Origin: Clavibacter phaseoli
GTDB lineage: Bacteria; Actinomycetota; Actinomycetes; Actinomycetales; Microbacteriaceae
NCBI RefSeq assembly: GCF_021922925.1
Contig: NZ_CP040786.1
Coordinates: forward strand, 1-64,000
Reading direction: 5' to 3'
DNA: 64,000 nt
In this document: positions 3,136 to 43,095 of the stretch, one piece after another
Numbering within the stretch: the first letter of the stretch is position 1
How the letters are laid out: the number at the start of each line of letters is the position of its first letter
The notes under the pieces: generated by a model
What the model was told of the DNA's origin: nothing
The model's database searches: none
What the model saw: only the letters and a program-made list of their open reading frames with translations
Position numbers and translations under genes: made by a program

Positions 3136-3141
3136 AGCATG
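3136..3141 (-). promoter_or_regulatory. Putative leaderless -10 element of the PspC gene
   Basis: Minus-strand CATGCT fits the relaxed xANNNT form of the actinobacterial -10 element. Six bases separate it from the ATG at 3129, so transcription would begin at or next to the start codon. No convincing -35 is seen. Confidence 0.35.
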
Positions 3142-3235
3142 GCAGGAGCCGCTGCGCCGCCGCCGGGCAGCCGCCCCCGCGGACCGCTCCCTGGACAGCC
3201 CGTGGGAATGCGCGCGTTTCCTCGCACGCCGGAAT

Positions 3236-3241
3236 TAGCGT
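3236..3241 (+). promoter_or_regulatory. Putative leaderless -10 element (TAGCGT)
   Basis: TAGCGT ends six bases before the ATG at 3248. The spacing matches six other TANNNT elements in this window and predicts an mRNA starting at the start codon. Confidence 0.5.
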
Positions 3242-3247
3242 CGGGGG

Positions 3248-4060
3248 ATGAGGATCCGAAGCCTGCCCCTGGTCCTGATCGCCTCGACCGCGGTCGTCCT
3301 GACGTCGTGCACCGGCCCCGACGAGGTCGAACCCGTCCCGCTGCCGGTCCCCGAGTCCGTCGAGACGTCGCCGGCGGACGAGGGCGACGAGGCCGCGGCG
3401 CCCACCGCGGAGACCGCGCTCGTCGCCGCGTACCTCGACGCCGTCGCGGCCGGTGACGCCGACGCCGCATGGGGCATGCTCACGCCCGAGGCGCAGGCGT
3501 CGGCCGGGTCCCGGGAGTCGTACGTCGCCTCCTTCGGCCGCGCGGGCACCGTCTCCCCGGAGGACGCGGAGCGCCTCCGCGCGGTGGAGCCGATCGCGGC
3601 CGAGGGCCCCGAGGGCGCCTTCACGCTCGTGTCCGCCTCGGACGGCGACGTCGCCGACGCCTGGATCGTGCGCGACACCGACCGGGGTCTCCTGCTCGAC
3701 GACCACGTCGTCCCCGCGACCGGCGCGACGCCCTACGAATGGCGGAACCCGGCGGCGGGCCCCGAGGGATCCGCGGATCCGGTGCCCGCCGTCGACACCT
3801 CGCGCCCCCTCTCCGTCGCGTTCGCCGCGCCGGAGGACGGCTCCGAGGACGGCGGGCTCGTCGGCTACCCGGAGACGGCGTGGGCGTGGATCGACGGGAC
3901 CGAGGTGCCCGTCGGGCTCGTCGCCGCGGGATCCGGCCGCCTGCTCGAGCTCGACACCTCCGCCTGGACGGACGACGACGAGGCGCCCGACGCGGTCACG
4001 CTCGTGTGGCAGGTGGGAGGCGACTCGCCCGCCTGGCGCAGCACGACCGTCGCGGCCTGA
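3248..4060 (+). CDS. Predicted lipoprotein of unknown function
   Basis: This 270-residue protein has a clear lipoprotein signal: MRIR, a hydrophobic stretch and the lipobox VLTSC with lipidated Cys21. An acidic, Pro-rich spacer (about 22-60) follows, then a segment with NTF2/DUF4878-like character (ALVAAYLDAVAAGDADAAWGMLTPEAQ). The last 100 residues contain a probable beta-rich domain. No catalytic motif is recognised. It is expected on the outer face of the membrane. It is a single-gene unit between a leaderless promoter and a strong hairpin at 4066. Confidence 0.75.
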   Translation: MRIRSLPLVLIASTAVVLTSCTGPDEVEPVPLPVPESVETSPADEGDEAAAPTAETALVAAYLDAVAAGDADAAWGMLTPEAQASAGSRESYVASFGRAGTVSPEDAERLRAVEPIAAEGPEGAFTLVSASDGDVADAWIVRDTDRGLLLDDHVVPATGATPYEWRNPAAGPEGSADPVPAVDTSRPLSVAFAAPEDGSEDGGLVGYPETAWAWIDGTEVPVGLVAAGSGRLLELDTSAWTDDDEAPDAVTLVWQVGGDSPAWRSTTVAA

Positions 4061-4065
4061 CGCGA

Positions 4066-4094
4066 CGGCCCCCGCAGTGAGCCCGCGGGGGCCG
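4066..4094 (+). terminator. Strong hairpin terminator after the lipoprotein gene
   Basis: A perfect 10-bp stem: CGGCCCCCGC (4066-4075) pairs with GCGGGGGCCG (4085-4094) around a 9-base loop, directly after the stop at 4060. There is no U-tract, as is common in GC-rich actinobacteria. Confidence 0.7.
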
Positions 4095-4141
4095 GGCGTC
4101 GCCCGCGAACGGCTCCCCGTGAGTTCTCGTCCCCGACGCTT

Positions 4142-4155
4142 TGGGTGCAAACCCA
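4142..4155. promoter_or_regulatory. Inverted repeat in the promoter region of the ANTAR gene
   Basis: TGGGT-GCAA-ACCCA is a perfect 5-bp dyad about 115 bases before the ANTAR start at 4270. It overlaps a possible promoter (TTGGGT at 4141-4146, GATACT at 4162-4167). It may be an operator or an RNA hairpin near the 5' end; the role is inferred. Confidence 0.3.
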
Positions 4156-40722: not shown

Positions 40723-40748
40723 GGGCGTCCGGGAACAACCGGACGCCC
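40723..40748 (+). other. Intercistronic hairpin, fusA-tuf
   Basis: GGGCGTCCGG pairs with CCGGACGCCC (10 bp) around a GAACAA loop, 28 bases before tuf. It may set the 3' end of upstream mRNA or stabilise tuf mRNA. Confidence 0.5.
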
Positions 40749-40776
40749 CGCAACCGAGTCCTGAGGAGGACCCACA

Positions 40777-41970
40777 GTGGGTAAGGCCAAGTTCGAGCGG
40801 ACCAAGCCGCACGTCAACATCGGAACGATCGGTCACGTCGACCACGGCAAGACGACGCTGACGGCAGCGATCTCCAAGGTCCTGGCGGACAAGTACCCGT
40901 CGGCGACCAACGTGCAGCGCGACTTCGCGTCCATCGACTCCGCTCCCGAGGAGCGCCAGCGCGGCATCACGATCAACATCTCGCACGTCGAGTACGAGAC
41001 GCCCAAGCGTCACTACGCTCACGTCGACGCCCCGGGTCACGCTGACTACATCAAGAACATGATCACGGGCGCCGCCCAGATGGACGGCGCGATCCTCGTG
41101 GTCGCCGCCACCGACGGCCCCATGGCGCAGACGCGCGAGCACGTGCTGCTCGCGAAGCAGGTCGGCGTGCCGTACCTGCTCGTCGCGCTCAACAAGTCCG
41201 ACATGGTCGACGACGAGGAGATCCTCGAGCTCGTCGAGCTCGAGGTCCGCGAGCTGCTCTCCAGCCAGGACTTCGACGGCGACAACGCCCCCGTCGTCCA
41301 GGTCTCCGGCCTCAAGGCGCTCGAGGGCGACGAGAAGTGGGTCGAGCAGATCGTCAAGCTCATGGACGCGGTCGACGAGTCCATCCCGGAGCCCGTCCGC
41401 GACAAGGACAAGCCGTTCCTCATGCCCGTCGAGGACGTCTTCACGATCACCGGTCGTGGAACCGTCGTCACGGGTCGCGCCGAGCGCGGCACCCTCGCCA
41501 TCAACTCGGACGTCGAGATCGTGGGCATCCGTCCCACCGTCAAGACCACCGTCACGGGCATCGAGATGTTCCACAAGCAGCTCGACGAGGCCTGGGCCGG
41601 CGAGAACTGCGGGCTCCTGCTCCGCGGCACCAAGCGCGAGGACGTCGAGCGCGGCCAGGTCATCGTCAAGCCGGGTTCGGTCACGCCGCACACGGACTTC
41701 GAGGGCACCGCGTACATCCTCTCCAAGGAGGAGGGCGGGCGTCACAACCCGTTCTACGCGAACTACCGTCCGCAGTTCTACTTCCGCACCACCGACGTCA
41801 CCGGCGTCATCACGCTGCCCGAGGGCACCGAGATGGTCATGCCCGGCGACACCACCGACATGAACGTCGCGCTGATCCAGCCGATCGCCATGGAGGAGGG
41901 CCTCGGCTTCGCCATCCGCGAGGGTGGCCGCACCGTCGGCGCCGGCACGGTCACGAAGATCGTCAAGTAG
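40777..41970 (+). CDS. tuf: Elongation factor Tu
   Basis: The 397-residue GTPase starts at GTG 40777 (MGKAKFERTKPHVNIGTIGHVDHGKTTLTAAISK), with G3 DAPGHADYIKNMITGAAQMDGAI and G4 NKSD. It delivers aminoacyl-tRNA to the A site. Only one tuf gene is in this window. It is followed 25 bases later by a hairpin terminator. Confidence 0.99.
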   Translation: MGKAKFERTKPHVNIGTIGHVDHGKTTLTAAISKVLADKYPSATNVQRDFASIDSAPEERQRGITINISHVEYETPKRHYAHVDAPGHADYIKNMITGAAQMDGAILVVAATDGPMAQTREHVLLAKQVGVPYLLVALNKSDMVDDEEILELVELEVRELLSSQDFDGDNAPVVQVSGLKALEGDEKWVEQIVKLMDAVDESIPEPVRDKDKPFLMPVEDVFTITGRGTVVTGRAERGTLAINSDVEIVGIRPTVKTTVTGIEMFHKQLDEAWAGENCGLLLRGTKREDVERGQVIVKPGSVTPHTDFEGTAYILSKEEGGRHNPFYANYRPQFYFRTTDVTGVITLPEGTEMVMPGDTTDMNVALIQPIAMEEGLGFAIREGGRTVGAGTVTKIVK

Positions 41971-41995
41971 CACCCAGCTCCACCAGCACCACCTC

Positions 41996-42030
41996 CGACA
42001 GGGTCGGGCCGTCATGGCCCGGCCCTGTCG
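41996..42030 (+). terminator. Terminator of the str operon
   Basis: The arm 41996-42010 pairs with 42016-42030 (15 positions, one mismatch) around a GTCAT loop; 26 bases after the tuf stop. Confidence 0.8.
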
Positions 42031-42114
42031 GCCGTTAACGCGCGCGGACATCACGGGCTCCTGCGGATGGGCGCAGGAGATCGATCGTGCACCAACGACC
42101 GTCGCCGCGACGCG

Positions 42115-42120
42115 TAGGTT
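42115..42120 (+). promoter_or_regulatory. Putative leaderless -10 element (TAGGTT)
   Basis: TAGGTT ends six bases before the ATG at 42127; identical hexamer and spacing precede the gene at 35948. Confidence 0.5.
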
Positions 42121-42126
42121 CGATCA

Positions 42127-43095
42127 ATGGTCAGACTCCGGCGCAGCGACGCCACCGGCAAGGGCTACACGCGCAAGAGGGCCGGGAAGGGCTGGACCTA
42201 CCTCGACTCCGACGGGAACCGGGTCGCCGACAAGGCGCTGCGCGCCCGCATGGACCACCTCGGGATCCCGCCGGCGTGGACCGACGTCTGGATCGCGCCG
42301 TACGAGAACGGCCACGTGCAGGCGACCGGCATGGACAGCGCCGGGCGGCGGCAGTACATCTACCACCCGACCTGGCGCGAGCAAAAGGACCGGATCAAGT
42401 TCGACCGGTCGCTGCAGCTCGCCGAGTCGCTCCCGGCCGCGCGCCGGCAGGTCACCATCCACCTCCGCCAGGACGGCTTCACGCGCGACCGCGCGCTGGC
42501 CGCCGGCTTCCGGATGCTCGACACGGGCAGCCTCCGCGTGGGCAGCGAGCGCTACACCGAGTCGAACGGCAGCCACGGGCTGTCGACGCTGCTCTGCTCG
42601 CACGTCACCGTGCACGACGACACCGTGCACCTCGAGTTCCCCGCGAAGAGCGGCCAGGAGTGGTCGAGCGACATCCGCGACCACGATCTCGTGCAGGTCG
42701 TCGGGGGCCTCCAGGAGCGCGGTCCGAACGCCCGGCTGCTGGCCTACGAGGACGGCGGCGAGTGGCACCCGCTCGGCGCGGCCGACATCAACGACTACGT
42801 CCGGGAGCGGACCGGCGGCGAGTTCACCGCGAAGGACTTCCGCACGCTGCACGGCACCGTCGCCGCGGCGATCAGCCTGGCGAAGCACGGGCCCGAGGCG
42901 ACCAAGGGCAAGCGGCAGCGTGCCCTCGCGCAGGCGTACCGCGACGCCGCCGAGGTGCTCAGCAACACCCCGACCATCGCGAAGAACAGCTACGTGGATC
43001 CGCGGCTCGTCGACGAGTACGTGCACGGCCGCACGATCGACCCGCAGCGCCTCGCGTCGGGGGAGACGGAGCTGCGGAACCTGCTGTTCCGATGA
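42127..43095 (+). CDS. Type IB DNA topoisomerase (bacterial/poxvirus type)
   Basis: This 322-residue enzyme has an N-terminal domain (GKGYTRKRAGKGWTYLDSDG) and a catalytic domain with Arg137 (LRVGSERYTE), Lys174, the KDFRT segment with Arg239 and the nucleophile Tyr289 (IAKNSYVDPRLVDEY). These match bacterial type IB topoisomerases, which relax supercoils by a 3'-phosphotyrosine link. It is a single-gene unit set between the str operon and the S10 operon, with its own leaderless-type promoter and no link to either. Confidence 0.9.
   Translation: MVRLRRSDATGKGYTRKRAGKGWTYLDSDGNRVADKALRARMDHLGIPPAWTDVWIAPYENGHVQATGMDSAGRRQYIYHPTWREQKDRIKFDRSLQLAESLPAARRQVTIHLRQDGFTRDRALAAGFRMLDTGSLRVGSERYTESNGSHGLSTLLCSHVTVHDDTVHLEFPAKSGQEWSSDIRDHDLVQVVGGLQERGPNARLLAYEDGGEWHPLGAADINDYVRERTGGEFTAKDFRTLHGTVAAAISLAKHGPEATKGKRQRALAQAYRDAAEVLSNTPTIAKNSYVDPRLVDEYVHGRTIDPQRLASGETELRNLLFR

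What the first reader, a model, noticed from the sequence alone, without database searches (positions are those of the whole stretch)
3136..42129. A recurrent leaderless promoter: TANNNT exactly six bases before the start codon
Seven genes share TANNNT followed by exactly six bases and then the start codon: 3248 (TAGCGT), 15519 minus (TACGGT), 18128 minus (TACGGT), 19296 (TAGCAT), 24167 minus (TAGGCT), 35948 (TAGGTT) and 42127 (TAGGTT). Three more have xANNNT at the same spacing (3129, 18742, 36966), and 14281, 22068 and 24889 are off by one base. None has a convincing -35. With A and T each at roughly 13%, TANNNT at one fixed position is a rare event. Transcription about seven bases after the -10 would start on the A or G of the start codon. 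Leaderless mRNA is known to be common in actinobacteria. The pattern also picks start codons: it prefers ATG 15519 over the upstream GTG in the TetR gene.
Basis: partly seen in the sequence, partly recalled or inferred. Interest (0 to 1): 0.7.

Follow-up and report, generated by a model that had tools for sequence, protein, structure and literature searches.

The report
Leaderless promoters in a Clavibacter genome
About one gene in seven in this plant-associated bacterium has its promoter set so close to the start codon that the messenger RNA probably begins at the start codon itself, a known habit of actinobacteria seen here very clearly.

Summary
All seven TANNNT-N6-start sites are in the sequence. 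They belong to a genome-wide class. In 824 kb sampled from this Clavibacter-like genome, TANNNT lies exactly six bases before a candidate start in 97 of 698 genes. Spacing 7 gives 28, spacing 5 gives 2, and about 4 per position are expected. A count that uses no gene models finds 319 TANNNT-N6-ATG in the whole genome, against 23 at N5 and 138 at N7. These starts lack Shine-Dalgarno sequences (7 of 97, against 362 of 601 other genes). A -35 is missing in bulk. In relatives T, A and T are each kept in 30 of 31 comparisons, while most positions upstream of -16 drift. The leaderless reading is well supported, although no transcript end has been measured. The architecture is already described for Actinobacteria (PMC3160421, PMC3898074). 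Five of the seven -10 boxes begin with an in-frame TAG stop; I tested whether that is selected and found no frame effect (72:25 at N6 against 21:7 at N7). Verdict: a real, ordinary, well-displayed case of a known kind.

The parts
3236..3241 (+). -10 box TAGCGT, six bases before ATG 3248 (270-aa ORF, no Pfam match)
   Evidence: same box and spacing in the two relatives of five in which an ortholog was found
15526..15531 (-). -10 box TACGGT, six bases before ATG 15519 (TetR-family regulator)
   Evidence: TANNNT at N6 in 5 of 5 relatives
18135..18140 (-). -10 box TACGGT, six bases before ATG 18128 (DUF1684 protein)
   Evidence: TACGGT at N6 in 5 of 5 relatives
19284..19289 (+). -10 box TAGCAT, six bases before GTG 19296 (196-aa ORF; weak match to 2-ph_phosp just below its cut-off)
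   Evidence: N6 in 4 of 5 relatives, N7 in the fifth
24174..24179 (-). -10 box TAGGCT, six bases before ATG 24167 (285-aa ORF, no Pfam match)
   Evidence: TAGGCT at N6 in 5 of 5 relatives
35936..35941 (+). -10 box TAGGTT, six bases before ATG 35948 (332-aa ORF, no Pfam match)
   Evidence: TAGGTT at N6 in 5 of 5 relatives
42115..42120 (+). -10 box TAGGTT, six bases before ATG 42127 (type IB DNA topoisomerase)
   Evidence: TAGGTT at N6 in 5 of 5 relatives; positional peak in orthologs of other genera
3136..3141 (-). variant box CATGCT, six bases before ATG 3129 (PspC protein)
   Evidence: CATGCT in 5 of 5 relatives; CANNNT enriched at N6
18749..18754 (-). variant box CACACT, six bases before ATG 18742
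   Evidence: CANNNT in 5 of 5 relatives
36954..36959 (+). variant box CAGGCT, six bases before GTG 36966 (DUF6121)
   Evidence: CANNNT in 5 of 5 relatives, but the flank is equally conserved
22076..22081 (-). TAATCT, seven bases before GTG 22068
   Evidence: unchanged in 5 of 5 relatives, but the flank is equally conserved
24897..24902 (-). TAGCCT, seven bases before ATG 24889
   Evidence: orthologs in G013, G008 and G001 have TANNNT at six bases; the rows of the other two relatives could not be read
14270..14275 (+). weak candidate GACAAT, five bases before ATG 14281 (not TANNNT)

Best explanation
These are housekeeping-type promoters with a -10 box (TANNNT, most often TAGNNT) and, as a rule, no -35. 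They are placed so that RNA polymerase starts on the first base of the start codon, which makes leaderless mRNAs. Polymerase recognises the -10 box and starts seven bases after its last T, on the A or G of ATG or GTG. Because that RNA has no Shine-Dalgarno sequence, the ribosome must recognise the 5'-terminal start codon directly. Shown here: position, sharpness, lack of Shine-Dalgarno, gene context and conservation. Inferred from other actinobacteria: the actual transcript start, the sigma factor and the way the ribosome initiates.
For: Position: 97 of 698 genes at N6, 28 at N7, 10 at N8, 2 at N5, about 4 expected. Whole genome without gene models: 319 TANNNT-N6-ATG against 23 at N5 and 138 at N7; the reversed patterns give 36, 37 and 32. 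The cut-off at N5 fits leaderless starts, since a transcript beginning inside the codon would lose it. Inside genes, 0 of 10,313 start-like codons have the box at N6; in-frame TAG and TAA cannot occur there, so the fair comparison is with the 25 non-stop boxes of the 97. Shine-Dalgarno core: 7 of 97 against 362 of 601 other genes and 9.4% at internal codons (generous to the 601, since any of their candidate starts counted). Context: 7 of 97 follow a same-strand gene within 30 bases, against 180 of 596 other genes; 54 of 97 have an opposite-strand upstream neighbour, against 188 of 596. Start codons: 75 ATG, 22 GTG, no TTG. Conservation: positions -12, -11 and -7 identical in 30 of 31 comparisons, while -40 to -17 range from 13 to 27 of 31 (seven sites and five related genomes, so not independent events). 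Among 52 topoisomerase IB genes from outside Clavibacter, TANNNT is at N6 in 16 and at N7 in 3, with 0 or 1 at every other position tested (related species counted singly). All 18 genomes of the genus counted show 286 to 337 matches against 26 to 77 for the reversed pattern.
Against: No transcript end has been measured. The base before the start is C in 62 of 97, which is no more than at candidate starts with a Shine-Dalgarno core (252 of 346), so the C expected just before a transcription start gives no extra support. The whole-genome count for GTG shows almost no excess (119 against 107 for the reversed pattern), although the gene-based count does (22 GTG starts). One of the seven (35948) has a Shine-Dalgarno-like GAGG inside the stretch tested, absent in relatives G013 and G008. 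Positions -16 to -13 are about as conserved as the box (28 or 29 of 31), so the conserved block is wider than TANNNT. Two of 97 sites do match 5 or 6 bases of TTGACA at a fitting distance, where shifted controls give 0.2.
Confidence: 0.91

Rival explanations
1. Gene-calling artefact. TAG at -12 is an in-frame stop, so 'first start after a stop' ORFs would show it without any promoter.
For: 72 of 97 boxes contain an in-frame TAG or TAA, and five of the seven window boxes are TAG.
Against: Boxes that are not stops (TAC, TAT) show the same ratio of N6 to N7: 25 to 7, against 72 to 21 for stop-like boxes (Fisher P = 1.0). The other in-frame positions -9, -15 and -18 have 1, 10 and 3. The count without gene models shows the same peak.
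Confidence: 0.01
2. The boxes are real -10 elements, but transcription starts one to three bases upstream of the codon, so the mRNAs carry a very short leader.
For: Spacings 7, 8 and 9 are also above background (28, 10, 10), and spacing shifts between 6 and 7 in orthologs of 19296 and 24889.
Against: Spacing 6 dominates and spacing 5 is at background, which matches a start on the codon itself.
Confidence: 0.06
3. TANNNT is a translation signal in the mRNA, not a promoter, and the transcripts carry ordinary leaders.
For: The position is fixed relative to the start codon.
Against: These genes avoid close same-strand neighbours (7 of 97 against 180 of 596), as genes with their own promoter do. 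The motif is the -10 motif mapped in M. tuberculosis (PMC3898074, passages).
Confidence: 0.02

Closest known systems
TA-led (leaderless) genes of Actinobacteria, Zheng et al. 2011, PMC3160421 (passages seen)
   Same: TANNNT at about 12 bp upstream of the start, counted from the first T; leaderless genes average 19.2% in Actinobacteria. Here 97 of 698 (14%) have strict TANNNT at N6.
   Different: The passages say that the three middle bases carry little information in high-GC groups; here the third base is G in 69 of 97 boxes. The passages shown do not name Clavibacter, and the search for 'clavibacter' plus 'leaderless' did not list this paper.
Leaderless transcriptome of Mycobacterium tuberculosis, Cortes et al. 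2013, PMC3898074 (passages seen)
   Same: TANNNT -10, no conserved -35, TGN extended -10 rare, about a quarter of genes with a primary start site leaderless, transcript starts measured.
   Different: There ATG and GTG are used similarly in leaderless and leadered genes. Here ATG is commoner in the leaderless class (75:22, against 208:138 at candidate starts with a Shine-Dalgarno core).

Membership tests
Actinobacterial leaderless promoter | TANNNT with first T at about -12 from the start codon, as a sharp peak | tested here: met
   97 of 698 genes
Actinobacterial leaderless promoter | no Shine-Dalgarno sequence before the start | tested here: met
   core in 7 of 97, internal background 9.4%
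Actinobacterial leaderless promoter | no conserved -35 element | tested here: met
   best match to TTGACA distributed as in shifted controls, apart from 2 of 97 sites with 5 or 6 matches (control 0.2)
Actinobacterial leaderless promoter | box and spacing conserved across relatives | tested here: met
   30 of 31 comparisons for each of T, A and T
Actinobacterial leaderless promoter | 5' end of the mRNA on the start codon | not testable with these tools
   no transcript data held; the listings showed no start-site mapping in Clavibacter
Extended -10 (TGN) promoter | TG one base upstream of the box | tested here: not met
   1 of 97

The most novel reading that the evidence does not exclude
In this genus the -10 box has a second use. 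In about three quarters of leaderless genes its TAG (or TAA) is an in-frame stop four codons before the start, which would end any ribosome arriving in frame on a longer transcript and so insulate the leaderless start. The physical arrangement is real (72 of 97). Selection for it is not supported: G is preferred about as much at N7, where it is out of frame (18 of 28 against 69 of 97, P = 0.49).
Probability: 0.05. Interest if true: 0.45.

Novelty: new member of a known kind. Interest (0 to 1): 0.22.

Why it matters
It gives a simple sequence rule for correcting start codons in Clavibacter and probably its family: where TANNNT-N6-ATG stands at a gene's beginning, that ATG is very likely the true start (97 seen where about 4 are expected). 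It also marks which genes are probably translated without a Shine-Dalgarno sequence. Among these, transcription regulators are frequent: TetR_N in 5, MarR in 3 and LysR HTH_1 in 2 of 97, while no regulator family reached two members among 97 random other genes. The mechanism itself is known.

Tried and rejected
Stop-codon artefact: rejected. Dual use of the -10 as a stop codon: no frame effect. A -35 element: not in bulk; TTG is found at most twice at any position from -50 to -21 in 97 sites, though 2 sites match 5 or 6 bases of TTGACA against 0.2 in controls. Extended -10: 1 of 97. An SD-like GAGG directly after the box (noticed at 24167): 4 of 97, not followed further. The initiator base C at -1: not informative. 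GTG in the whole-genome pattern count: almost no excess over the reversed pattern. The internal-codon control cannot contain in-frame TAG or TAA and so is fair only for TAC and TAT boxes. The reversed-pattern control differs in composition from the true pattern, so the comparison of 118 genomes of the phylum is only indicative; there this genome has the highest ratio (319 to 36), but another genome of the genus, not among those 118, is higher still (324 to 26). Functional bias: only the 25 commonest of 149 and 174 families are shown; all families with two or more members are among them. The gene finder is my own simple script and is not benchmarked; 705 genes passed its score and 7 of them had no candidate start. 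In one search, for 24889 one row was misplaced and one cut off; for 3248 three relatives had no match and one row was left out of the column count because its alignment began at residue 5. In one search, 13 minus-strand loci were not read because of orientation. In one search, 22 of 74 topoisomerase IB orthologs were dropped because no start codon stood at the aligned position.
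Full report
What was claimed and what is there. All seven are in the sequence with that spacing. The three xANNNT sites are also there. Two of the three 'off by one' sites are TANNNT at seven bases; the third (14281) has only GACAAT at five.

Where the window comes from. The window is the first 64 kb of a 3.10-Mb contig in a 3.23-Mb, two-contig genome. 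Its topoisomerase IB protein is 91 to 98% identical to that of 16 of 17 other genomes of the same genus, the 17th matching in two pieces. The closest named records are Clavibacter, family Microbacteriaceae (the family name is recalled).

Is it more than chance? I sampled 38 stretches of 20 kb spread over the main contig, plus the window (824 kb of 3.23 Mb), and called genes with a simple script. For every gene I took all candidate starts near the coding boundary, so that no start was chosen by the motif. TANNNT lies at N6 in 97 genes, N7 in 28, N8 in 10, N9 in 10 and N5 in 2. Of 705 genes, 698 had a candidate start, and the background is 3.9 genes per position. Genes with only one candidate start: 43 of 271 at N6, 7 at N7, 1 at N5. 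Start-like codons inside genes: 0 of 10,313 at N6; in-frame TAG and TAA cannot occur there, so this is a fair control only for the 25 boxes of the 97 that are not stops. Without gene models, the whole genome has 319 TANNNT-N6-ATG, 23 at N5 and 138 at N7, against 36, 37 and 32 for the reversed patterns. For GTG the same count gives 119 against 107, hardly an excess. In the window 7 of 64 genes have it, where 0.36 are expected.

An artefact I looked for. TAG at -12 is in frame with the start, so it is a stop codon, and 'ORF from the first start after a stop' could create such a peak. It does not: stop-like boxes have an N6 to N7 ratio of 72 to 21 and the others 25 to 7 (Fisher P = 1.0). The third-base G is preferred at N6 (69 of 97) and at N7 (18 of 28) alike (P = 0.49). 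So TAG looks like the promoter's own preference, and the stop codon comes with it.

Anatomy. In the 97 sites the base just after the box is C or G in 92, and TGN is present in 1. Matches to a -35 follow the shifted controls, except that 2 sites have 5 or 6 of the 6 bases (control 0.2). CANNNT is also enriched at N6 (31 against 9.0), TANNNC slightly (9 against 3.4), the other variants little or not at all. Start codons are 75 ATG, 22 GTG and no TTG. The Shine-Dalgarno core is at background (7 of 97; 9.4% at internal codons), while 362 of 601 other genes have it at some candidate start. These genes rarely follow a same-strand gene within 30 bases (7 of 97 against 180 of 596).

Conservation. For the seven sites in five unnamed relatives of the genus, 31 of 35 comparisons could be counted (three relatives lack a match to the 3248 gene and one alignment of it began late). 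T, A and T of the box are each identical in 30 of 31; positions -40 to -17 in 13 to 27 of 31; positions -16 to -13 in 28 or 29. The one miss is 19296 in one relative, where the same box stands one base further away. At 24889 the reverse is seen: seven bases here, six in three relatives. In 52 topoisomerase IB genes from outside Clavibacter (of 74; 22 dropped for want of an aligned start codon), TANNNT is at N6 in 16, at N7 in 3 and at most once elsewhere; allowing one of T and A to change, 40 of 52 are at N6 and at most 8 at any other position. These counts treat related species as separate. All 18 genomes of the genus, this one included, show the whole-genome excess.

Mechanism. The box at -12 to -7 is where a -10 element sits relative to a transcript start (in M. 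tuberculosis TANNNT is mapped 7 to 12 bp upstream of the start; PMC3898074, passages). Transcription would start on the first base of the codon, and the mRNA has no leader. That spacing 5 is at background and spacings 7 to 9 tail off fits a codon that must be at, or within a few bases of, the 5' end. The transcript end, the sigma factor and direct ribosome recognition are inferred, not shown.

What is known. Zheng et al. 2011 (PMC3160421, passages) describe TANNNT about 12 bp upstream of starts as the mark of leaderless genes, detected in 86 of 89 Actinobacteria at an average of 19.2% of genes. Cortes et al. 2013 (PMC3898074, passages) measured leaderless transcripts for about a quarter of M. 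tuberculosis genes with a primary start. The listings (titles and abstract openings, open library only) showed no start-site mapping for Clavibacter or Microbacteriaceae. So the kind is known and the instances here are new members.

Function of the genes. In the window: TetR regulator, DUF1684 protein, topoisomerase IB, and four with no or weak family matches. In the sample, regulators are prominent: TetR_N 5, MarR 3, LysR HTH_1 2 of 97; among 97 random other genes no such family has two or more members. This is suggestive only.

Noticed in passing
24165-24179 (minus strand): The box, the six bases GAGGAG and the ATG are all unchanged in five relatives, with a Shine-Dalgarno-like GAGGAG touching the start codon, too close for normal use; GAGG right after the box occurs in 4 of 97 sites.
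   Followed up: partly
G015:C1:600760-602799: In one relative the topoisomerase IB gene lies in two pieces about 1 kb apart that share five residues, as an insertion with a target duplication might leave. Described only.
   Followed up: no
24000-56000: GC falls from about 75% to 67-72% with a positive AT skew, over a long run of mostly plus-strand genes.
   Followed up: no
window and L009-L046: The base after the -10 box is C or G in 92 of 97 leaderless sites, and in the window's sites positions -16 to -13 are about as conserved as the box in relatives.
   Followed up: partly
whole genomes of 118 species of the phylum: The ratio of TANNNT-N6-ATG to its reversed pattern varies from below 1 to 8.9, highest in this genome among the 118; the control is imperfect.
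   Followed up: no
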